Shown piece after piece: positions 46,866 through 59,635 of a stretch of 64,000 nt of DNA. The DNA comes from Candidatus Anaeroferrophillacea bacterium (lineage in GTDB: Bacteria; Desulfobacterota; Anaeroferrophillalia; Anaeroferrophillales; Anaeroferrophillaceae): contig JAFGAM010000126.1 of the NCBI GenBank assembly GCA_016933675.1, positions 80,905 to 144,904 of the forward strand, written 5' to 3'. Positions within the stretch are counted from its first letter, which is position 1; the number at the start of each line of letters is the position of its first letter. Both the position numbers and the translations under genes were made by a program. The notes under the pieces are model-generated. The model ran no database searches and had not been told where the DNA came from. It saw only the letters and a list, made by a program, of their open reading frames with translations.

Positions 46866-47810
46866 TCACGGCTGCCGGTAGCCCGGCAGCGAGATGGCAC
46901 CGCGGTCGGCGTCGACGGCACAGACCATACCCTGCATGAACGTCAGGCTCAGCGGACAGTGGCCGTAGCGAATGCCGGCCAGAATCGGAAACCGGTCGGC
47001 GGCGAAAAACTCGCGGAAAAATTCCCCGAACATCCGGTTCTCCTCCGCATCCGGGGAGGAGAAATGACCCAGAAGCACCATCCCCACCCGTGCGAAGATC
47101 CCCGCCAGGCGCAACTGCGTAAGCCAGCGATCAATCCGGAAGAGCCGCTCGTCAGGCTCCTCCAGAATCAGGACCGCATCGGTGAAGTCCGGCATGAACG
47201 TGGTCCCGGCCAGCGCGGCGATAACACTCAGGGTGCCGCCGAGCAGCGGCCCGGCGGCGGTCCCCGGACGCAACACGACAACCTCGGGTGCCTGTAGCCA
47301 GGGCTGGATCAATTCCGCCACCCGGGGACCGGAATCACCGCCGACCAGGGCCCAGAACAGCTCCTCGGCGATCACTCCCGGCCGGGCCATGTCGATGGCC
47401 ACCATGGGTCCCGAACAGGTGGCCAGCCCGGTTCGTTGCCAGATGGCCAGTTGCATGGCGGTGATGTCGCTGTAGCCCACCAGCAGGCGGCGGGAGCGGG
47501 CGATGAGCTCGAAGTCCAGGCGCGGCAGCAGCGGCAGGCAGCCGTAGCCGCCGCGGGCGGCGAACACCGCCTCGACGGCCGGATCGGCGAACATCCGGTG
47601 CAGGTCCGTCAGCCGTTCTTCATGGGTACCGGCCAGGTGATGCCGGCGCCGGAGAATTCCCGGCGCCGGAACCGGGCGGTAGCCCCGGCATCGCAGCCAG
47701 TCGCAGCCCCGGTCAAGGAACGACTCCTGTACGGGACCGGCCGGAGCGGTGACGCCGATGGCGGCGCCGGAAATCAGCGGGCGTGGGTATCGTGTCGTTA
47801 TTACGCCCAT
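46866..47810 (-). CDS. ldcA: Muramoyltetrapeptide LD-carboxypeptidase (peptidase S66)
   Basis: The enzyme removes the terminal D-alanine from murein tetrapeptides during peptidoglycan recycling. S66 features are IGVTAPAGPV near the start, VEAVFAARGGYGCLPLL, the serine nucleophile in LLVGYSDITA, GPLLGGTLSVIAAL and ILEEPDERLFRIDRWLTQL. I prefer the ATG at 47810; the TTG at 47855 is possible but adds 15 residues. The product is 314 residues. Confidence 0.92.
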   Translation of the reverse strand: MGVITTRYPRPLISGAAIGVTAPAGPVQESFLDRGCDWLRCRGYRPVPAPGILRRRHHLAGTHEERLTDLHRMFADPAVEAVFAARGGYGCLPLLPRLDFELIARSRRLLVGYSDITAMQLAIWQRTGLATCSGPMVAIDMARPGVIAEELFWALVGGDSGPRVAELIQPWLQAPEVVVLRPGTAAGPLLGGTLSVIAALAGTTFMPDFTDAVLILEEPDERLFRIDRWLTQLRLAGIFARVGMVLLGHFSSPDAEENRMFGEFFREFFAADRFPILAGIRYGHCPLSLTFMQGMVCAVDADRGAISLPGYRQP

Positions 47811-48227
47811 TGTCGCCGGGAAGCCAGTCGAATAAATAACGTAATGATCCCTCAAGAATCATGCCTGCCTGCCGAAGGCAGGCACAGGATCGCATCGATT
47901 TCACCCGCGGGTGCCCCGCGGCCGCTTTCATGCGCACATTTCCTAGCAAATCAATTGACAAAAGTCAAAAAATATAATAGCTTTCGCAGATACTTAGAGA
48001 ACACTACGCACTTTGACCGGAAATTATAAAACACTATTTTCGGTGACCCCGCAGCCTGTGCCGATTGGCCTCGAAAACCGGATGGCACCGTGACTGCGCC
48101 GGCATCACTGCGCCTTCCGGCCCGATGACCGCGGCGTACCCGGCAATACGCCGCAGCGATTCGGGGCCCGGCGCATGGCTGCGGTTGGCGTCGTTGCCAG
48201 GCCATCATTTTTCTGACAGGTATCCCA
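47811..48227. other. Divergent spacer between ldcA and the TPR gene
   Basis: An AT-rich island (about 47940-48040) in GC-rich DNA probably contains promoters. I see TTGACA at 47955 and TATAAT at 47973, but only 12 bases apart, and a weaker TTGACC...TATTTT pair (48013/48035) pointing towards the TPR gene. A GGATGGCACCGT box occurs at about 48080-48091. No gene is visible. Confidence 0.45.
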
Positions 48228-49388
48228 TTGACCCCGCCATCCGGAATTTTCAACCGATTGAAACAATTGCTGAAATCCGCCGCCTCTGGCGGTCGGCAGC
48301 GGGTATCGCAGGAGTCGGCATCCCTCGAAACCCTGCGCGGCCAGTGGCAGCGAAACCCCGGCAACATCCGCCTGCGCATTAAGCTGGCCGATGCCATGCT
48401 GGCCGCGGATCTGCAGCAGGAAGCCGTCACCGAGTACCTGGGCGCCGCCCGGTCCTACGTCGAGCAGGGCTTTGCGCCGATGGCCATTGCCATATTCAAA
48501 AAGATCGTCAAAATCAACGCAGACCATATCGAAGCGAATCTCGCCCTTGCCCGCATCTATCAGCGGGAAAACCTTTTTGCCGATGCCGTCACGTATTACC
48601 AGAGCGTGTTCCATCACCACTACACCACCGACCGTCGCCAAGAGGCGTTCGATATCCTCGAAAAAATCATCGAGATCGCGCCCGACAAAGAACAATTCCG
48701 CCGGCAGATGCGGGAGATGTTTCCGGATTTCCGCGAGGTGGAAAAGAGCGCCTATTCCGACCTGCTGGTCACGAATCGGACGGCGGGGGCGGAAAAGCTG
48801 GATATAACCCCGGCGGACGACGATTTCTTCGATCTCGGCGCCGAGCTGTCGGCGGAGCTCGGGGAGGATGATCTGGCCACCATCCCTGACCGCGGCACTG
48901 AACATGCCCCGGCCGCGCTCGACGCCGATATCGGCGTCGAGCGTATCTTCGCAGCACTCAAGCAGACCATCCGTGAGGGCAGCGCGAGCGCCGGTGACGA
49001 TGACGCCGATCAGCAGAAGTTTCACTACAATCTGGCGGTGGCCTACCGGGAACTGGGAATGAACGACCAGGCAATCGAGGAAAGTCAGACTTCCCTCGAC
49101 GTTCCGGCCTACCGGATCCCGGCGCTGCTGCTGCGCGGTCAGATCTTTCGCGAACTGGGAAATTTCAAGGAGTCACTGTCACAACTCCAGCAGGGACTGC
49201 GCGAACGCGGTCTCAACCGGCGTGATTTTCTCAGCCTGAAATACGAGCTCGGTATCACTCTGGTGGGCCTGAACGACGCTCCGCGAGCGGTGGAGGCCTT
49301 TCGCGAGGTCTACTCCATCGACCCCGCGTTCCGGGAAGTGGCGGCATACATTGCGGAGCTGGATGAGGGCGTCGAGATGATCTCCTGA
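48228..49388 (+). CDS. Tetratricopeptide-repeat protein (start of MglA-like module)
   Basis: The 386-residue soluble protein has TPR-type repeats at about 45-145 (IRLRIKLADAMLAADLQQEA, MAIAIFKKIVKINADHIEAN and LARIYQRENLFADAVTYYQS) and again at 260-375. An acidic linker (about 190-250) separates them. TPRs usually hold protein partners. The start is TTG with AGG upstream; no ATG fits. The gene ends 27 bases before the GTPase gene, so it is likely its operon partner. Confidence 0.85.
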   Translation: MTPPSGIFNRLKQLLKSAASGGRQRVSQESASLETLRGQWQRNPGNIRLRIKLADAMLAADLQQEAVTEYLGAARSYVEQGFAPMAIAIFKKIVKINADHIEANLALARIYQRENLFADAVTYYQSVFHHHYTTDRRQEAFDILEKIIEIAPDKEQFRRQMREMFPDFREVEKSAYSDLLVTNRTAGAEKLDITPADDDFFDLGAELSAELGEDDLATIPDRGTEHAPAALDADIGVERIFAALKQTIREGSASAGDDDADQQKFHYNLAVAYRELGMNDQAIEESQTSLDVPAYRIPALLLRGQIFRELGNFKESLSQLQQGLRERGLNRRDFLSLKYELGITLVGLNDAPRAVEAFREVYSIDPAFREVAAYIAELDEGVEMIS

Positions 49389-49415
49389 TCATCACACCGT
49401 TTTCGAGGTTAATAC

Positions 49416-50402
49416 ATGGCCATATTCAACTACCAGAAAAGGGAGATCGGCGCCAAGATCGTCTATTACGGTCCCGCCCTGTGCGGCAAGACCACGAATG
49501 TGCAGTTCATCCACCTGAAACTCAACCCCAGGCAGCGGGGTGAACTGGTCTCCCTCGCAACCGACAGCGACCGCACCCTGTTCTTCGATTTTCTCCCCAT
49601 CGAACTGGAGAATATCGGCGGCTTCAAAACCCGGTTCCATATCTACACGGTCCCCGGACAGGTGTATTACAACTCCACCCGCAAAGCGGTGCTCACCGGT
49701 GTCGACGGCGTCATCTTCGTTGCCGACTCACAGCGCTCGATGCTGCGGGAGAACCTCGAAAGCCTTGAAAACCTGCGCGAAAACCTGCGCTACTACAACC
49801 GCGACCTTGACACCCTGCCCCTGATCATACAGTACAACAAGCGTGACATGGATGACGTGATGCCGGTGGACGAGCTGAACGAACACCTCAATCCCCGCTC
49901 GCTGCCATTTTACGAGGGCGTGGCGGTCAAGGGCACCGGGGTGCTGCCAACCCTTACCAGCTGCTGTAAGCTGGTGCTCCAGCAATTGAAGAAAAAGAGT
50001 GCCGCCGCCCGCGGCGGCACCGCGACGTCCGCAGCCCCTTCCCGTCCCGCCGCCACGCCGCCGGAGCCGGCCGCGCAACCGATCGATCCCTTTGCCACGG
50101 CAGCGGATGACGGGAGCGGTTTCGCCCTCGAAAGTCCTTCTCCGGCGGCGCCGATCAAGTCGACGCCGACACCACCGCGGATCCCCCTGGCCGGCGATGA
50201 CACCGGCACCGCACGACTGGAATCCGGGCCTGCCCCCTGGGCGGAATTCAAGCCCGAGGTGGTCCGGGTCGGCAAAGTGGTCATCAGCGACCCGCATCGG
50301 ATCACCATCCCCATGCAGCTCGCCCTGGACGAACGCCATGACCGGCTGCTTTCCGTTGACCTGTCGCTGACCATCAATCATCTCATCCGGAAAGATGACT
50401 GA
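49416..50402 (+). CDS. MglA-type Ras-like GTPase with long C-terminal extension
   Basis: The first 195 residues match MglA: YYGPALCGKTTN (P-loop), TVPGQVYYNSTRKAVLTGVD (switch region), FVADSQRSM and QYNKRDMDDVMP (base recognition). MglA proteins control polarity and motility in Myxococcus and type IV pili in several bacteria. This one adds about 130 residues: a Pro/Ala-rich linker and a compact end with VVRVGKVVISDPHRITIPMQ and SLTINHLIRKDD, unknown to me. GAGG precedes the ATG. No MglB or roadblock gene is adjacent. Confidence 0.9.
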   Translation: MAIFNYQKREIGAKIVYYGPALCGKTTNVQFIHLKLNPRQRGELVSLATDSDRTLFFDFLPIELENIGGFKTRFHIYTVPGQVYYNSTRKAVLTGVDGVIFVADSQRSMLRENLESLENLRENLRYYNRDLDTLPLIIQYNKRDMDDVMPVDELNEHLNPRSLPFYEGVAVKGTGVLPTLTSCCKLVLQQLKKKSAAARGGTATSAAPSRPAATPPEPAAQPIDPFATAADDGSGFALESPSPAAPIKSTPTPPRIPLAGDDTGTARLESGPAPWAEFKPEVVRVGKVVISDPHRITIPMQLALDERHDRLLSVDLSLTINHLIRKDD

Positions 50403-50558
50403 TGGTTTTACCGCAACCCCATCTTCTTCATGGCGCTGCCGCCCGAGTCAATGCGGCGTAGGGACACGACGCCGCCTTCGGGGTTACACGCCACGAATCC
50501 AGAAGGGGTGCGCCGCCATTGCATGCTACCGGACCCCGGCATTCGTTACGGCTCCCTC

Positions 50559-52433
50559 ATGACTGACCGTACCCCCCGGATTCAGCGAATGTACCGCAAA
50601 CTGCTCCCGGTCGCCGTCCTGTGCCTGCTGGTGCTGGCACCGGCGGCGGTTCATGCCGGCAGCCCGCCGGCCGACCGTCTCATGCCCGCCTGGGAACATT
50701 TTCTTGCCGCCTGCGAGGGGCGGGAGATCACCGCAATTGATCACGCCTTTGACCGGTTGCTGCGGATCCACGCGGAAACGGAATGCACCAATGCCACCCG
50801 GTTCTCCCGGGCGCTGATCCTCCTGGCCGACCGGGCATACCGCCGGCAGGATGCCGCCGGCGCCGCCATGCTGATGGAAAAGGCCTACCGCCTCTCCCCC
50901 GCCGCCGCCTTCGTGCCGACCGCCCGGGCGGTACTGCAGGCCCGTACCGGCCGACCGTTCAAAGCCCCGGGGTTCTATCTCCAGGCCCTGAGAGCGACCG
51001 CCGAATCCGCCTGGAACCGCCTGCCCATCGCTGCCGCGGCCGCCGGTGCCGGCGCCTGGGCGGTGCGGTGGACCGCCTTCTGGTTCCTTCTCGCCCTGCT
51101 TTTCCGCTACCTGAACATGTTCGCCGAACACCTCGAACACCGCTGGGGTTCAGGCGCCGGCCGCTGGCTGCCGTTCCCGATGCTGCTGCTGTCGGCGGCG
51201 GCAATGCTGCCCGAAGGCATGTTCAACGCCGCGGCGATTCTGCTCCTGGCACCAACCGCCGCCTGGCTGAACCATCGTGAACGTCTGGCGGCAGTACTGG
51301 TGATTGCCCTGCTCGCCGTCGGACCGTATCTCGGTGATCGCCGCGACACCATGTTCGCCGCTCTCGGCCATCCGTTTCTCAACGCCGCGGAACGACTGAA
51401 CACCGATGCCTTCGACGCCGACGACCTGCGACTGGTCGCCGCCCGGCCCGACCGGCTGCCGGGGCGCCGGTTGAAATATTTCTCCCTCGGCACCGCCCTG
51501 CAGCGGCAGGGAGACTACCGCGAGGCCATCGCGGCATACTCCCGGCTGCTGGATGATGGTACCGCACCGTCACCGGCGGTCTGCAACAACCTCGCCAACC
51601 TCCACTTCATGATCGAGGACAACGCCGCCGCCATCGACCTCTACCGGCAGGCCATCAAGGGCAATCCCGGCAACGGCATCTACCATTACAATCTGAACCA
51701 TGCCCTCATCAAGGACTCCTTCTCCCTGCAGGAAAGCGAGGCATCCTTCATCCAGGCATGGGAGCTGTCCCCGGATATCATCGCCCGGCAGATGGCGCGG
51801 GAAAAGGGGTCGGACACCCAGATGCTGATCAACGAACCGCTGCCGGTCAACTTCATCGCCGCCTACATCGACGGAGAGGGTCACGCGGCGGCCTCTTGCC
51901 GGTATCCAGGCTCGCGGTACGGCCGCCCGGCCGATTATGTTCTGCTGGCCGGCATGCTGATCCTGCTGGTCGCCGGCTGGCGGCGTGAACCCCTGCGCTT
52001 CTGCCCGGTATGCGGCACCGGAACCGCACTGTCCGGTCGCCGATTGATCGTCTGTCCCGCCTGTCTGATCACCGCCCGCGGCGGTCATGAAAGCCATTTT
52101 CGCCGGCACTTGACCCGCATGCGGACGATTGTCTGGCTCTGGGATCGCGTCGGCGCCGCCATCGGCCTGGTCCTCCCGGGGTTTTACCAGGTAATCACCG
52201 GCCGATCATGGAGCGGTCTGGTTCTGCTCGCCAGCTTCGGTTTCGCAACCGCGTTGCAGGTCATCCGCTTGCTGACGACCGGCGGCGCCGACCCCCCGCC
52301 GCTGGCGATCCATACCCTGGAGGCCATTCCGTTGCTGCTGTTTCTGGTCTTCAACGCGGTCCACATCGGTTTCCTCCGGCACCAACGGCGGCAACTCGCC
52401 CTGCCCCGGCCGGCGGCATCGCGAAAGGCATGA
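50559..52433 (+). CDS. Membrane TPR protein with cytoplasm-type zinc ribbon
   Basis: A signal or first helix (LLPVAVLCLLVLAPAAVHA) opens the protein, then a helical region, four or more membrane segments (residues about 135-265), a TPR block (LKYFSLGTALQRQGDYREAI to IYHYNLNHALIK) and a helix. A zinc ribbon FCPVCGTG...VCPACL and two or three final helices follow. I do not know a named family. The start could be 50559 or 50589; neither has a strong ribosome-binding site, and the longer track frame begins in repeat-like DNA. Confidence 0.75.
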   Translation: MTDRTPRIQRMYRKLLPVAVLCLLVLAPAAVHAGSPPADRLMPAWEHFLAACEGREITAIDHAFDRLLRIHAETECTNATRFSRALILLADRAYRRQDAAGAAMLMEKAYRLSPAAAFVPTARAVLQARTGRPFKAPGFYLQALRATAESAWNRLPIAAAAAGAGAWAVRWTAFWFLLALLFRYLNMFAEHLEHRWGSGAGRWLPFPMLLLSAAAMLPEGMFNAAAILLLAPTAAWLNHRERLAAVLVIALLAVGPYLGDRRDTMFAALGHPFLNAAERLNTDAFDADDLRLVAARPDRLPGRRLKYFSLGTALQRQGDYREAIAAYSRLLDDGTAPSPAVCNNLANLHFMIEDNAAAIDLYRQAIKGNPGNGIYHYNLNHALIKDSFSLQESEASFIQAWELSPDIIARQMAREKGSDTQMLINEPLPVNFIAAYIDGEGHAAASCRYPGSRYGRPADYVLLAGMLILLVAGWRREPLRFCPVCGTGTALSGRRLIVCPACLITARGGHESHFRRHLTRMRTIVWLWDRVGAAIGLVLPGFYQVITGRSWSGLVLLASFGFATALQVIRLLTTGGADPPPLAIHTLEAIPLLLFLVFNAVHIGFLRHQRRQLALPRPAASRKA

Positions 52434-52434
52434 C

Positions 52435-53436
52435 ATGACACCGGTATCCGAGCTCCGGGGATATCTCGGCGGGTTCGACCTGACCGATGTCCTGCAACTG
52501 ATCTCCCAGCAGCAGAAGACCGGCACGCTGCGGGTGGAACACGATGAGGAATGGTGCGTTCTGGGGTTTGAAAACGGCCGCTTCGTCGGCCTGAGCTGTT
52601 CCTTTGCCGGCGGCTATCTCGACCTCGGCGGGATGCTGGTAGCCGGCGGATTGCTGTTGCCTCGACAGCTTCAGGATCTCCGGCAGCAGGAGCTCAGGCA
52701 GGGCACCGCCGTTGAGGATCTCCTGACGGGCCGGAAAATTATTTCCGCTGACCGGCTGACCGAATTGAACCAGGTCCGTCTTTACGAAGCGCTGGCGGTC
52801 ATTCTGCGCTGGAAGTCGGGCAGCTACCGTTTCACCCCCGGTCGGGACGCCGGCCGCTCACCTTTTTTCAATCCCCAGCCGGCCGACTTCGTGGTCCTCG
52901 AAATCCTGCGGCAGCTGGATGAAATGGAAGTCCTGCGACAGCGGGTCGGCCCCCCGGAACAGATGTTTGAGGTACTCACCACCTTCGCCGGCGGAGAGGG
53001 GCTCTTCGGCGACGAAATCGATGAACAGTACGACGAAACGGAGCGCGGCATTCTCGCCGCCCTGCGCCGCGGAGCGACGGTCGGAGAGAGCATCGATACA
53101 ACGATGTGCGGCACCTACCGGGCCTACCGGAGTATCGCCGCCTTCATCGCCAACGGACTGGTGGTCCCCCTGGGCATCAAGGTCGAGCTGCCGACCGGGG
53201 CCGGAGGGCTCGTCACCCGCTTCCAGCGTCTGCCCGACCTGCTGCTGCCGCTGCTGCTCATTCTTCTGGTTGCGGTCGGGATCCGGAGTTTCATCCGTCC
53301 CGTCCTGCCCGCCTGGCGCCGGGCATCCCCGGCGGCAGGACTCGGGATCACTCTGGAGCCCCGGTACCGGCTGGCGGTCGACGAACAGCGGCAAGCGGAA
53401 AAACTGCTCGAATATTCGTCGCCACAATCGAAATGA
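52435..53436 (+). CDS. DUF4388 (PATAN) domain protein with C-terminal membrane segment
   Basis: The N-terminal 110 residues show the DUF4388 pattern: LRGYLGGFDLTDVLQLISQQ with KTGTLRVE and FENGRFVGLS. Such domains occur in signalling proteins linked to two-component systems and small GTPases. A helix at about residues 278-297 (LLLPLLLILLVAVGIRSFI) anchors the end. It begins one base after the previous stop, so it is part of the same operon. Confidence 0.85.
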   Translation: MTPVSELRGYLGGFDLTDVLQLISQQQKTGTLRVEHDEEWCVLGFENGRFVGLSCSFAGGYLDLGGMLVAGGLLLPRQLQDLRQQELRQGTAVEDLLTGRKIISADRLTELNQVRLYEALAVILRWKSGSYRFTPGRDAGRSPFFNPQPADFVVLEILRQLDEMEVLRQRVGPPEQMFEVLTTFAGGEGLFGDEIDEQYDETERGILAALRRGATVGESIDTTMCGTYRAYRSIAAFIANGLVVPLGIKVELPTGAGGLVTRFQRLPDLLLPLLLILLVAVGIRSFIRPVLPAWRRASPAAGLGITLEPRYRLAVDEQRQAEKLLEYSSPQSK

Positions 53437-53487
53437 TGAAACCCAACGGTGTGCTGTGCCGTTTTTTCATGAAGCGTGATCTATACC

Positions 53488-55023: not shown

Positions 55024-56226
55024 TCAGTCGGCGATGTCGGCGAGGCTGACGATTACCCGGCACCCCGCTCCGCCGGTGGGTGCGAGGGCAAGATCGCCGC
55101 CGTGACGGATGGCGATGGCACGGGCCAGAGCCAGGCCGATGCCGAGCCGTTCCTGCTGCGGGTTGTCACTCGCCAGGGTAAACGGCTCCACCACCAGTTG
55201 ACATTCATCATCGGGCACTCCGGGCCCGTCGTCGGTAACGGTAAACTCCACGCCGCCCAAGGGCGGGCGGCGCACCGCGACCGTCATCCGCCCACCGTCC
55301 CGACCGTAATACATACCGTTTTCCACCACCTCCCAGAGCATGGCTTCCAGCAGCTCACGGTCGCCCGGCAGGGTGCCCGGTGCATCGATATCCCAGCTCC
55401 AGACCAGCGCCATCCCCCGCCGGTCACGGGCGGTGAAGCGCGCCCCGATGGCGTGCTCAAGTTCACCGAGAACGACATGTTCCCGCCGGTTCACCGGTCG
55501 CATGCCGCTGCCGATACGGGTGTAGAGAAATACCTTGCCGGCATGGTCGAGAAACTGCCGGCAACGGTCACGGATGGCCCCGGTCAGCAGGGCCCCTTCG
55601 ACGTCCAGGGAGCCGCCGGACTCAAGGCTGGTGACATCGCTGAGCATCCGGTTCATGATCAGCCGGGTGCGTTCAAAGGCCAGATGGATGGTTTCGGTAC
55701 GGCGCCGGTAGACGTTCTCGGCGATGCGCCGCGCCGCGGCGGCTGACTGCTCACCATCGCGCACCCGGTCTTCGAGCTGCCGGTTGACCGCCGCGAGGCG
55801 GACCGCAAGTTTTCGTTGTTCCTCCCGCAGGTCGTGGAAGCGGAAGGCGTCATCAAGGGCGGCAATGACGTCCGCCCCCATCTTCCAGGGTTTGGTGATG
55901 TAACGATAGACATAGCCCTCGTTGATCGCCGCCAGAACGGTGCTCGTCTGGGCATAACCTGACAACACCATGCGGACGACGGCGGGGTGGCGCCGGCGGA
56001 CCTCCCGGAGCAGTTCAAGCCCGTTCATTTCCGGCATGCGCATGTCGGTCACCAACACCTCGACCGGCTCCCGTGCGAGGATTTCCAAGGCCTCCCGGCC
56101 GCCGGTGGCAAACACGCCGGTGTACGGCGAATCCAGCAGCCCCCGACGCAGCGACCGGAGCACCCGTTCCTCGTCATCGACGAACAATACCAGCCGCTGC
56201 CGATTCCCGTTTTGTGTCTGCATCAT
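55024..56226 (-). CDS. Receiver domain fused to a histidine-kinase-type ATPase
   Basis: I start it at the ATG pair near 56226 (MMQTQNGNRQR), not at the 56727 track start, whose extra 167 residues are an out-of-frame reading of the REC-HDOD gene. The receiver (about 10-125) has LFVDDEERVLRSLRR, VLVTDMRMPEMNG and YITKPW. The ATPase domain has VVENGMYY, DDGPGVPDDE and GIGLALARAIA. I see no canonical histidine phospho-acceptor box between them; a helical stretch with ETIHLAFERTR lies there. It is the last gene of the signalling trio. Confidence 0.85.
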   Translation of the reverse strand: MMQTQNGNRQRLVLFVDDEERVLRSLRRGLLDSPYTGVFATGGREALEILAREPVEVLVTDMRMPEMNGLELLREVRRRHPAVVRMVLSGYAQTSTVLAAINEGYVYRYITKPWKMGADVIAALDDAFRFHDLREEQRKLAVRLAAVNRQLEDRVRDGEQSAAAARRIAENVYRRRTETIHLAFERTRLIMNRMLSDVTSLESGGSLDVEGALLTGAIRDRCRQFLDHAGKVFLYTRIGSGMRPVNRREHVVLGELEHAIGARFTARDRRGMALVWSWDIDAPGTLPGDRELLEAMLWEVVENGMYYGRDGGRMTVAVRRPPLGGVEFTVTDDGPGVPDDECQLVVEPFTLASDNPQQERLGIGLALARAIAIRHGGDLALAPTGGAGCRVIVSLADIAD

Positions 56227-56260
56227 TTCCAGCACCTGTATTGTTGTTACGCCGAGATCG

Positions 56261-57484
56261 TCATGGTACCGGTGACGGAGAGTTGATGAAAAAACATCGT
56301 TCGCGGTACTCCTGCATGATCTCTCCGGAGATCCCCGCCCGGGCGATGATCTCCGGGTCCGGATCTCCCGGCCAGGAGCGCGCGAAGGCCGACATCGCCA
56401 GCAGATCGGCAATATGCACCAGGGTGAGAAACGCCGCATCATCGGGATTTCCGCCGGCCGGCGGATGGTGATGATAGAGGGTGGCGGCGATGATCGGCAG
56501 CGGCATATTCCACCAGTTGAGCAGCCAGGCACCCAGTTGCGCGTGGTCGACGCCGAAGACCTCACGCTCCATTGCCACCAGACCACGTCCCCCCTCACGG
56601 TCGCAGCGGACCAGGATTCGGCCGTATTCGGCGGGAAACTGCTGCAACAGCAGGAGCATACCGATATCGTGCAGCAACCCTGCGGTGGCCCGGGTCTCGT
56701 CGATCTTCCGCTCATGCACGCGCTCATGGAGTTCGTGCAGCAGACCGTTGCAGCACACTGAATGCTCCCAGATGGACTTCGGACTGTAATTCCCCGCTTC
56801 CGGGCAGGTAAGAGCGGTGAACACCGAACTCGACAACACGATATCCTTGAGGTTCATCAGGCCGATATACACCGCCGCCCGCTTGAGGGAGGCGGTGGCA
56901 ACGCGGAAATAAGAGGAGTTGGCAACCTGCAACACCTTGGCGGCAATCCCCGGATCCCGCTCCACCACGGCGATGATATCGTCGAAGGCGGCATCAGTTT
57001 CGATCAGTTCCATGATCCGCCGGTAGATATCCGGCAGGATCGGCAGTTCGCTGATACCGTTGATCAATTCCAGCAACCGGTGGTCGCGCAGCACATCCTC
57101 GATTTCCAGCAACCGGGCCAGCAGTTCCTTCAGCCGGGTATTGTCCCAGGGCTTGGGAATGTACATCTTCGCGGTACCGTCGATGATCGCCTTGTAGGCC
57201 GTATCCTCGCAGGTATAGCCGCTGAGGATCAGGCGAATGACGTCGGGATAACGCTGCTTTACCAGGTTGAGAAACCGGTAACCGTCCATCTCCGGCATCC
57301 GCATGTCGCTGACGACGATATCGATCCTGCGGGCCTCGAGGGCGGCCATGGCGGAGGCGGCGCTGTCGGCGAAGTAAAGCCGGTAGTCACTGTCGAGGAG
57401 GGCCCGCTTCAGCGACCGGAGGATACTCTTTTCATCATCGACGAAAAGTACCGCTTTTTCGGTTACGGCAGGTTTTTCGCTCAC
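56261..57484 (-). CDS. Response regulator with HDOD output domain
   Basis: The 407-residue protein has an N-terminal receiver with FVDDEKSILRSLKR, DIVVSDMRMPEMDGYRF and MYIPKPWDN, and then an HDOD domain with LPILPDIYRRIMELI, VERDPGIAAKVLQVANSSYF and the region ATAGLLHDIGMLLLLQQFP. HDOD regulators act in motility and stress signalling in many Gram-negative bacteria. The start is GTG in a GTGA overlap with the kinase gene, which supports a functional pair. Confidence 0.92.
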   Translation of the reverse strand: MSEKPAVTEKAVLFVDDEKSILRSLKRALLDSDYRLYFADSAASAMAALEARRIDIVVSDMRMPEMDGYRFLNLVKQRYPDVIRLILSGYTCEDTAYKAIIDGTAKMYIPKPWDNTRLKELLARLLEIEDVLRDHRLLELINGISELPILPDIYRRIMELIETDAAFDDIIAVVERDPGIAAKVLQVANSSYFRVATASLKRAAVYIGLMNLKDIVLSSSVFTALTCPEAGNYSPKSIWEHSVCCNGLLHELHERVHERKIDETRATAGLLHDIGMLLLLQQFPAEYGRILVRCDREGGRGLVAMEREVFGVDHAQLGAWLLNWWNMPLPIIAATLYHHHPPAGGNPDDAAFLTLVHIADLLAMSAFARSWPGDPDPEIIARAGISGEIMQEYRERCFFINSPSPVP

Positions 57485-59268
57485 CGGCGGCCCTTTTCCG
57501 GCGTTACCCGGTCCATCGCTTCCGGGTCGACCGGCAGCCTGAAGGTGAATTCGGCCCCCCGGCCCGGTTCGCCGGCAACACTGATCTCACCGCCGTGTTT
57601 GTTGACGATGATATCGTAGGAGATGTTCAGCCCGAGTCCGGTGCCCTCGCCTACCGGTTTGGTGGTGAAGAACGGGTCGAACACCCGCCCGAGGTTTTCC
57701 GGCGGGATGCCGGGGCCGTCGTCGGCGATGCGGCAAAAGACGGTATGCCCCTCCCGGCCGGTGACGATGGTGATGGTCCCCGGTGCCTCGCGATGCTGTC
57801 CGCGGATGGCCTGGGCGGCATTGACGATGATGTTCAGCAGCACCTGGTTGATCTGGCCGGCGTTGCACCAGACCTCCGGCAGACCGGACGCCAGCCGTTT
57901 CTCCACCACGGCGACGTACTTGTATTCATTGCGGGCGACCACCAGCGTTGTCTCGATGGCATCGTTGAGATTGTATGGGGTCTTTTCCCCGGGCTGTTCG
58001 ACGCGGGAGAATTCCCGGAGCTTGGTGACTATGGTGGTGATGCGCTCGAATCCTTCGGCGGATTCCCGGAACAGGTCGTCGATATCATCGATGATGAAAT
58101 CGAGATGGGCGTGCTCTTCGGCCGTACGGACGCACGCGGCGACGGCCGCCAGTTCCGGGCATTGGTCGGCGGAAACCATGGCGCGAAAGTCGCGGTACTG
58201 TTCAACCAGCACCTTGATCTTCATCATGTAGCCGCGCATCGACTCGAAATTGCTCGAGACGAAACCCACCGGGGTATTCAACTCGTGTGCCACCCCAGCG
58301 GCAAGCTGGCCGATGGAAGCCAGTTTCTCCTGCTGCACCATCTGCGAGTGGGCCTGCTGCAGTTGACTGAGGACCTCGGAGAGCTGGCGGTTGGCCTGCT
58401 GAATTTCCTCCTCACGGCGCTTGCGGTCACTGATATCCCGCCCCATGCCCTCGAAAAAACGCACCTTGCCCTGCGAATCCCTGACCCGGTGAACGTTGAT
58501 GGAATAATCCAGCGGCCGGCCGTCAAGATGGCGGAGCTGCAGTTCGAAGCCGTCAACACTGCGGCGGATTTCGAGCCGGTGCAGTAACCGGCCGACATCC
58601 GCCTCCCGCACCACCAGGCGGCGGACATCGGTTCCCAGCACAACTTCGACGGCGTAGCCCAGCCGGCGGGTAACGGAAGGACTGACGGAAAGAATGCGGC
58701 CACCCGGTTCGATCTGAAAAAAAACATCGGCAAGGTTGTCGAAGATATCCTTCAGCCGCTGGCGGCTCTCGTGCAGCGCCCGGTTGCTTTCCTGCAGCGC
58801 CCGGTTGCTTTCCTGCAGTGCCCGGGTACGTCGGGCCACCTCGGCTTCGAGAAACTCCTTCCGCGCCCGGAGTTCCTCGTCGCGACGGATATGCTCGCGC
58901 ATCAACACCGCGCGTTCGGAAACCCGCTGGATAATATTCGGTAGCACGGCCAGATCGACAAACGGTTTTTCGAGAAAATCCCACGCCCCGGTACGCATCG
59001 CCTTCACCGCATCGGTCAGCCGGTTGGTGCCGGAAAAGGCGATAATCGGCAGCTGCGGCCAGTTACGGCAAAGTACCTCGATGATCTCGAAACCGCTGAC
59101 ATCGGGCATGAACAGGCCCACCATTGCCACGTCGGCGGGTTCATGATCCAGCGATCGCAGCGCCTCGTTGCCGTCCTGAAAGGCGGCGACCCGGTAGCCG
59201 GCATTTTCGAGAAAGCGGCTCACCAGCCCGAGTACCGGCAGTTCGTCGTCAATCAGCAGGATCTTCAT
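57481..59268 (-). CDS. Pseudo-receiver PAS histidine kinase
   Basis: The 595-residue soluble kinase starts at MKILLIDDELPVLG (59268), with GAGGGAAGGG upstream. It has a receiver-like domain (1-125), a coiled coil with tandem ALQESNR heptads (about 145-170), a PAS domain (about 172-290), a kinase helix with AAGVAHELNTPVGFV and an ATPase domain with NIIVNAAQAI, DDGPGIPPE and GEGTGLGLNISYDII. In the receiver the phospho-acceptor position is Gly (VAMVGLFMPD), while the acidic pair and FLEKPF remain. It cannot be phosphorylated at the usual site. Confidence 0.9.
   Translation of the reverse strand: MKILLIDDELPVLGLVSRFLENAGYRVAAFQDGNEALRSLDHEPADVAMVGLFMPDVSGFEIIEVLCRNWPQLPIIAFSGTNRLTDAVKAMRTGAWDFLEKPFVDLAVLPNIIQRVSERAVLMREHIRRDEELRARKEFLEAEVARRTRALQESNRALQESNRALHESRQRLKDIFDNLADVFFQIEPGGRILSVSPSVTRRLGYAVEVVLGTDVRRLVVREADVGRLLHRLEIRRSVDGFELQLRHLDGRPLDYSINVHRVRDSQGKVRFFEGMGRDISDRKRREEEIQQANRQLSEVLSQLQQAHSQMVQQEKLASIGQLAAGVAHELNTPVGFVSSNFESMRGYMMKIKVLVEQYRDFRAMVSADQCPELAAVAACVRTAEEHAHLDFIIDDIDDLFRESAEGFERITTIVTKLREFSRVEQPGEKTPYNLNDAIETTLVVARNEYKYVAVVEKRLASGLPEVWCNAGQINQVLLNIIVNAAQAIRGQHREAPGTITIVTGREGHTVFCRIADDGPGIPPENLGRVFDPFFTTKPVGEGTGLGLNISYDIIVNKHGGEISVAGEPGRGAEFTFRLPVDPEAMDRVTPEKGRR
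58773..58814 (-). repeat. Perfect 21-base tandem duplication inside the pseudo-receiver kinase gene
   Basis: Two identical 21-base units encode the heptad ALQESNR twice, and a third, diverged unit follows in each direction (RALHESR and TRALQES). The repeat preserves the coiled-coil phase between the receiver and PAS domains. Confidence 0.95.
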
Positions 59269-59635
59269 CATCACCCTTCCCTCAATCCGGACCGTCAAGG
59301 GAAGCTATCGGCAGAAATTCACGGAAATCAAGCACGAATGCCGGCCGGAGACAACGCGCCACGACAACACCGATGGAACCTGACGGCCATAACCCGATAA
59401 AACGGGATGGCACCGCCGGGGCGATGCGCGCATCACCTCGGCGGATGCACCCATCGTAAAAACTGAGGCATGCGGCGTCACCGGACGGCGCAAGTGGGTC
59501 AGCCGGCAGTGCAACAAAGCATATGGATGTGGTTACGAGGCCGTCAACATTGTTTTTGACACGGGGGGATTTCAACGGCATAATGCCGTCAAACAGCTTC
59601 GTTTTTTCATTCCATCAGGGAAAGGAACATACATC
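59269..59635. other. Divergent spacer between the kinase gene and fba
   Basis: It holds the fba promoter, a GGGATGGCACCG box at about 59404-59415, and CATGCGGCGTCACCGG at 59469-59484, which recurs at about 39298. No gene is visible. Confidence 0.6.
59556..59584 (+). promoter_or_regulatory. Sigma70-type promoter of fba
   Basis: TTGACA (59556-59561), a 17-base spacer and CATAAT (59579-59584) give a near-consensus promoter, 51 bases before the fba ATG. It is the best promoter match I found in the window. Confidence 0.75.

What the first reader, a model, noticed from the sequence alone, without database searches (positions are those of the whole stretch)
48228..53436. MglA-like GTPase module with TPR, zinc-ribbon membrane TPR and DUF4388 partners but no MglB
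Four co-directional genes with spacings of 27, about 156 and 1 bases form a unit. The GTPase is clearly MglA-type (YYGPALCGKTTN, NKRD), yet it carries a 130-residue extension ending in a well-formed, non-repetitive block. Known MglA systems use MglB, a roadblock protein, as GAP; none is present here. The two downstream proteins are membrane-bound and one carries a CxxC...CxxC ribbon. I infer a membrane-linked polarity or signalling complex that may not have been described.
Basis: partly seen in the sequence, partly recalled or inferred. Interest (0 to 1): 0.62.

Follow-up and report, generated by a model that had tools for sequence, protein, structure and literature searches.

The report
MglB-free MglA pilus-control operon
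Four neighbouring genes, kept together in the same order across many uncultured deltaproteobacteria-like lineages, appear to encode a bacterial Ras-type switch that has lost its usual off-switch partner (MglB) and instead comes with its own adaptor and membrane proteins, probably to control where or when type IV pili are built.

Summary
The four co-directional genes at 48228-53436 encode a two-block TPR protein, an MglA GTPase with a tail, a membrane TPR protein with CxxC...CxxC, and a DUF4388/PATAN protein with one membrane helix. Where contigs allow, the unit recurs: TPR gene upstream in 50 of 50 loci, both membrane genes downstream in 41 of 44. The tail's linker varies, but its last ~45 residues are conserved in 53 of 53 and match no Pfam or PDB family. 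No roadblock (MglB-type) gene was found in this genome or its 21 order-level relatives. Among MglA-bearing genomes of the phylum sample, 15 of 16 with the operon lack any roadblock gene; 61 of 67 without it have one. The operon's MglAs form one tree branch (SH-aLRT 98), and 57 of 60 carry Ala or Ser instead of Gly at P-loop position 21 (Ras G12), the change earlier noted in MglB-less Bdellovibrio. The TPR protein matches both ends of SgmX, the MglA effector that licenses type IV pili; PATAN domains bind PilB in cyanobacteria. Best reading: an MglB-independent, membrane-tethered SgmX-type module controlling type IV pili. Function is inferred. The host is a Tharpellales-order bacterium, not Desulfuromonadia.

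The parts
48228..49388 (+). TPR adaptor, short SgmX-like protein (386 aa), cytoplasmic
   Evidence: NCBIfam SgmX NF052243 best family, E 6e-25; all 32 members scanned match it; no TM helix
48360..48716 (+). N-terminal TPR block (aa 45-163), colinear with SgmX 35-153
48807..49373 (+). linker with FFDL motif plus C-terminal TPR block (aa 194-382), colinear with SgmX 836-1017, the MglA-binding end of SgmX
   Evidence: the non-TPR linker alone of two orthologues hits only SgmX 841-888
49416..50402 (+). MglA Group 1-type GTPase with C-terminal extension (328 aa)
49470..49493 (+). P-loop GPALCGKT; Ala at position 21 (Ras G12 equivalent) instead of Gly
   Evidence: PMC3983030
50247..50381 (+). conserved C-terminal beta block of the MglA tail (aa 278-322); preceded by a variable low-complexity linker
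   Evidence: no Pfam or PDB relative
50559..52433 (+). polytopic membrane protein with TPRs (624 aa)
51477..51713 (+). TPR region (aa 307-385) of the membrane protein
52002..52064 (+). CxxC...CxxC ribbon (C482, C485, C499, C502), invariant in 23 orthologues
52435..53436 (+). DUF4388/PATAN protein with one C-terminal TM helix (333 aa)
   Evidence: PF14332 E 3e-24; 35 of 35 members; TM in 34 of 35
52609..52773 (+). helical insertion of the PATAN domain (aa 59-113), resembling the N-terminal domain of PilB/PilF/MshE
   Evidence: profile search E 3e-19 against PilF (sum of four weak repeats), about 1e-4 against PilB and MshE
53221..53304 (+). transmembrane helix of the PATAN protein (aa 263-290)
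53445..53463 (+). terminator-like hairpin and T-run after the fourth gene
   Evidence: consensus match only

Best explanation
The four genes encode an MglB-independent, membrane-tethered MglA module that licenses type IV pilus assembly. Shown: conserved four-gene unit; an MglA G domain whose catalytic Arg53 and Gln82 are intact but whose P-loop Gly21 is replaced by Ala or Ser; no roadblock protein detected in nearly all host genomes; a TPR partner that matches the N-terminal and the MglA-binding C-terminal ends of SgmX; a PATAN partner anchored by one TM helix; a second, polytopic TPR membrane partner. Inferred: the GTPase stays GTP-bound for long because a side chain at position 21 blunts GAP action as in Ras G12 mutants; it binds the C-terminal TPR block of the SgmX-like adaptor, probably with its tail docking on a partner; the adaptor's N-terminal block and the PATAN protein bring the extension ATPase PilB to the pilus base; the membrane TPR/ribbon protein fixes the complex at a site in the inner membrane. 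Localisation is then set by membrane partners rather than by an MglB GAP at the opposite pole.
For: Conserved synteny. SgmX homology at both ends including a non-TPR linker; SgmX binds MglA-GTP through TPR12-14 and is needed for PilB polar localisation and pilus formation (PMC7519303, PMC7668184). PATAN domains bind PilB (PMC10519157, PMC7690835), and PATAN proteins co-occur with SgmX in STRING (PMC11580455). Roadblock absence: 0 of 22 in the order; 15 of 16 operon genomes versus 6 of 67 other MglA-bearing genomes, p 7e-11. Position 21 is A/S in 57 of 60 operon MglAs versus G in 37 of 40 MglB-coupled ones, the same change proposed to keep Bdellovibrio MglA GTP-bound without MglB (PMC3983030). 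PilT is present in all 16 operon genomes of the sample, and no genome lacking PilT has any MglA. The own genome has PilB and PilT over curated cut-offs.
Against: No pilus gene lies in the unit, and its flanks are unrelated housekeeping genes. PilT is common anyway: operon versus PilT alone gives p 0.13. TPR homology is easily inflated, the SgmX score is far below the curated equivalog cut-off (87.6 of 1800 bits), and the window's own linker alone gave no hit. Non-Gly at position 21 does not always lock a GTPase (for example Rab proteins; own knowledge). A three-member group has Gly21 without a neighbouring MglB. A roadblock protein too divergent for the Pfam model, or another GAP, cannot be excluded, and this genome is 87% complete. 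One genome, G044, holds both operon and a roadblock protein, so MglB-independence is not absolute.
Confidence: 0.55

Rival explanations
1. The module positions some other envelope machine (gliding motors, exopolysaccharide or protein secretion), as MglA does for Agl/Glt gliding and as the Bdellovibrio TPR protein may do for TamAB-like secretion.
For: MglA drives gliding as well as pili (PMC7519303); Bd2492 lies with tamAB (PMC3983030); the membrane TPR protein could serve any envelope complex; the unit has no pilus gene.
Against: Both recognisable partners, the SgmX-like protein and PATAN, are tied to type IV pili in the literature; no extra gene recurs beside the unit across lineages.
Confidence: 0.25
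2. A normal MglA cycle with an unrecognised GAP: one of the three partner proteins or the GTPase's own tail stimulates hydrolysis in place of MglB.
For: Arg53, Thr54 and Gln82 needed for MglB-assisted hydrolysis are invariant in all 59 distinct operon MglAs; the tail block is conserved and folded.
Against: No partner resembles a roadblock domain by sequence, and the PATAN model had no significant structural match of any kind; Ala/Ser21 argues against canonical GAP action.
Confidence: 0.25
3. A c-di-GMP signalling output module: the PATAN insertion is an MshEN-like c-di-GMP sensor that feeds the GTPase.
For: The insertion matches PilF, PilB and MshE N-terminal domains.
Against: The Arg of the c-di-GMP-binding RLG motif (motif from own knowledge) is not conserved in the insertion; the window protein has DLG.
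Confidence: 0.08

Closest known systems
M. xanthus MglA/MglB with SgmX (PMC7519303, PMC7668184)
   Same: MglA Group 1 G domain; TPR effector with N-terminal activating block and C-terminal MglA-binding block
   Different: Here no MglB, Ala/Ser21, a tailed GTPase, a TPR protein of 386 aa instead of about 1060, and all partners in one operon with two membrane proteins; SgmX in M. xanthus is encoded elsewhere with tamAB-like genes
Bdellovibrio bacteriovorus MglA with TPR protein Bd2492 (PMC3983030)
   Same: No MglB; Ser21 in place of Gly; a short TPR protein (353 aa) that binds MglA; needed for normal pilus formation and prey invasion
   Different: Bd mglA lies in the dnaX-recR neighbourhood; Bd2492 is with tamAB genes; no PATAN or membrane TPR partner reported
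PATAN-CheY regulators of Synechocystis (PixE, PixG, PilG, TaxP2)
   Same: PATAN domain, control of type IV pili through PilB
   Different: There fused to a receiver domain; here fused to a TM helix and encoded with MglA
Actinobacterial conservon (Cvn)
   Same: Conserved four-gene unit around an MglA-family GTPase with a membrane partner
   Different: Conservons have a histidine kinase and an MglB (CvnB); none here

Membership tests
MglA family, Group 1 (Wuichet and Sogaard-Andersen 2014) | Conserved G3 motif TVPGQ and Arg next to the G2 Thr | tested here: met
   TVPGQ, R53 and T54 in 59 of 59 distinct operon sequences; 57% identity to M. xanthus MglA over the G domain
MglA/MglB GTPase-GAP module | A roadblock/LC7 MglB encoded nearby or in the genome | tested here: not met
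   0 matches in own genome and 0 of 22 in the order; 41 of 43 long MglAs have no roadblock gene within 4 kb versus 18 of 75 short ones
SgmX (NCBIfam NF052243) | Curated equivalog score of 1800 bits over about 1065 aa | tested here: not met
   87.6 bits, 386 aa
SgmX-like MglA effectors | N-terminal TPR block and C-terminal TPR block colinear with SgmX | tested here: met
   Both blocks, and the only matches in the genome, lie in this gene
SgmX-like MglA effectors | Direct binding of MglA-GTP | not testable with these tools
   needs a binding assay or complex modelling
PATAN / DUF4388 (PF14332) | Pfam score over gathering cut-off | tested here: met
   85.7 bits versus 25
PATAN / DUF4388 (PF14332) | Binding to PilB | not testable with these tools
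   reported elsewhere for Synechocystis proteins (PMC10519157)
Bdellovibrio-type MglB-less MglA | Ala or Ser at position 21 and no MglB | tested here: met
Bdellovibrio-type MglB-less MglA | RomR partner | not tested
   no family model for RomR was used
Conservon | Histidine kinase and roadblock protein in the unit | tested here: not met

The most novel reading that the evidence does not exclude
A separate branch of the MglA family runs cell-surface polarity without a GAP: its GTPase is naturally kept in an active-like state by the Ras-G12-type change, and the conserved tail block, a fold with no known relative, together with two dedicated inner-membrane proteins replaces the GAP as the device that decides where the switch acts.
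Probability: 0.3. Interest if true: 0.8.

Novelty: new variant of a known kind. Interest (0 to 1): 0.62.

Why it matters
The 2014 survey of prokaryotic Ras-like GTPases found no constant neighbourhood for Group 1 MglA (PMC4316618), and MglB-less MglA has been studied mainly in Bdellovibrio. Here is a clade-wide, conserved operon that pairs an MglB-free, position-21-substituted MglA with its likely effector and two membrane partners. It offers a compact set of parts with which to ask how a Ras-like switch can set a place in the cell without a GAP, and it ties MglA, SgmX-like TPR proteins and PATAN domains together in one genetic unit, where the literature found here links them mainly by co-occurrence.

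Tried and rejected
MglB elsewhere in the genome or in the order: none found. Tail as a low-complexity artefact: rejected, conserved in 53 of 53. Tail as a known domain: no Pfam or PDB relative. PATAN protein as a hidden roadblock fold: Foldseek gave nothing at E below 0.001; a full-length model with membrane helices may blunt this test. PATAN insertion as c-di-GMP site: motif Arg not conserved. Extra conserved genes in the unit: none across lineages; flanks are shared only within lineages, such as an LdcA-type gene divergent upstream in the Tharpella order. Correlation of the operon with type IV pili: consistent, but PilT is too widespread for power. Only 2 of 10 short linker-only peptides hit SgmX below 0.001, a third weakly.

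Full report
What is there. The window carries four genes on the + strand: a TPR protein (48228-49388), an MglA GTPase with a 130-residue extension (49416-50402), a polytopic membrane protein with TPRs and a CxxC...CxxC ribbon (50559-52433) and a DUF4388 (PATAN) protein with one TM helix (52435-53436), spaced by 27, 156 and 1 bases. A terminator-like hairpin follows at 53445. The neighbours on both sides (aminotransferase, LdcA-type peptidase, YbaK-type protein, EamA-type transporter, judged from sequence) are ordinary.

Conservation. A scan of about 85,000 species genomes returned 80 loci. Profile searches of these show the TPR gene directly upstream in 50 of 50 operon-class loci with enough contig, and both membrane genes downstream in 41 of 44; the exceptions are L007, L044 and L054. 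The window's own family, the family of Candidatus Tharpella, and Syntrophia and other deltaproteobacterial lineages carry it. The host belongs to the order of Candidatus Tharpella: G021 in the window's order has the same contig coordinates as the Tharpella record L010. Flanking genes are shared only within lineages, so the unit is four genes.

The GTPase. Residues 1-195 are colinear with M. xanthus MglA. Arg53, Thr54 and TVPGQ are invariant. The operon MglAs form one side of a branch in the G-domain tree (SH-aLRT 98, quick tree). Position 21, which a published comparison equates with Ras G12 (PMC3983030), is Ala in 37 and Ser in 20 of 60 operon sequences; the three Gly cases also changed Cys23 to Ser (L049, L052, L054). 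In 40 short MglAs that sit beside a roadblock gene it is Gly in 37; in 37 other long MglAs it is Gly in 35. The substitution therefore marks this operon, not long tails as such.

No MglB. No roadblock domain was found in the own genome (87% complete) or in the 22 genomes of the order. In 138 genomes of the phylum at 90% completeness or better (own genome added), 57 of 75 short MglAs have a roadblock gene within 4 kb, but only 2 of 43 long ones do, and those two look like short MglAs with a long upstream open frame. At genome level 15 of 16 operon genomes lack any detected roadblock protein, against 6 of 67 other MglA-bearing genomes (p 7e-11, not corrected for relatedness). G044 is the one exception.

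The tail. Its linker is variable (whole proteins range from about 300 to 550 residues), but the last ~45 residues share a pattern (IVxxG...IxIPLxL...LxIxIxL) in 53 of 53 complete operon sequences. AlphaFold gives four strands at pLDDT about 93-95. Nothing in Pfam or the PDB matches.

The TPR partner. Its best NCBIfam match is SgmX, which all 32 members scanned also match. In the whole genome the only two SgmX matches lie in this gene, to SgmX 34-153 and 836-1017. Linker-only peptides without TPRs from two orthologues hit SgmX 841-888 and nothing else. In M. xanthus the three C-terminal TPRs of SgmX bind MglA-GTP, and SgmX is needed for PilB localisation and pili (PMC7668184, PMC7519303). Bdellovibrio has a 353-residue counterpart, Bd2492, that binds an MglB-less, Ser21 MglA (PMC3983030). 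The window protein is thus a short SgmX-like protein, not an SgmX equivalog (87.6 of 1800 bits).

The membrane partners. DUF4388 is the PATAN domain. PATAN regulators bind the extension motor PilB in Synechocystis (PMC10519157, PMC7690835), and PATAN proteins co-occur with SgmX (PMC11580455). The helical insertion of the domain resembles the N-terminal domain of PilB/PilF/MshE, without the c-di-GMP Arg. The large membrane protein keeps four cysteines and a PG motif in all 23 orthologues, otherwise only 15-27% identity; its role is open.

Reading. The parts that can be recognised all point to type IV pilus control, and every operon genome in the sample has PilT; no genome without PilT has an MglA. 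I therefore propose a membrane-tethered, MglB-independent SgmX-type module. The binding steps, the GTP-bound state, and the pilus output are inferences. Earlier work noted PATAN genes occasionally near Group 1 MglA and stated that Group 1 neighbourhoods vary widely (PMC4316618); no description of this four-gene unit turned up in the papers searched, which cover open-licence papers only.

Noticed in passing
L111, L113-L115, L117-L132, L058-L081: A second group of long MglAs (Fibrobacter and many phylum genomes) has other tails, mostly Gly21, and also no roadblock gene next door, so tailed orphan MglAs are broader than this operon.
   Followed up: partly
L055:1405-2571, L057:453-1655: A second, diverged copy of the SgmX-like TPR gene lies upstream of the operon in two loci.
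   Followed up: no
G000:C118:26682-26984 (outside the window): A second DUF4388 domain in a frame of 712 aa on the same contig; the genome has only two matches.
   Followed up: no
window 46866-47855: An LdcA-type (S66) peptidase gene divergent from the operon is kept upstream of it within the Tharpella order.
   Followed up: partly
window 55024-59298 (- strand): A row of response-regulator, HDOD-like and hybrid histidine kinase-like genes lies just downstream, on the other strand.
   Followed up: no
G000: The genome has four PilT-type ATPases over the curated cut-off, one about 24 kb beyond the operon on the same contig (C118:155076).
   Followed up: no
L161-L180 group (short MglAs beside a roadblock gene): Three of 19 of the more distant MglB-coupled MglAs also carry Ala at position 21, so the change does not strictly exclude MglB.
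   Followed up: no
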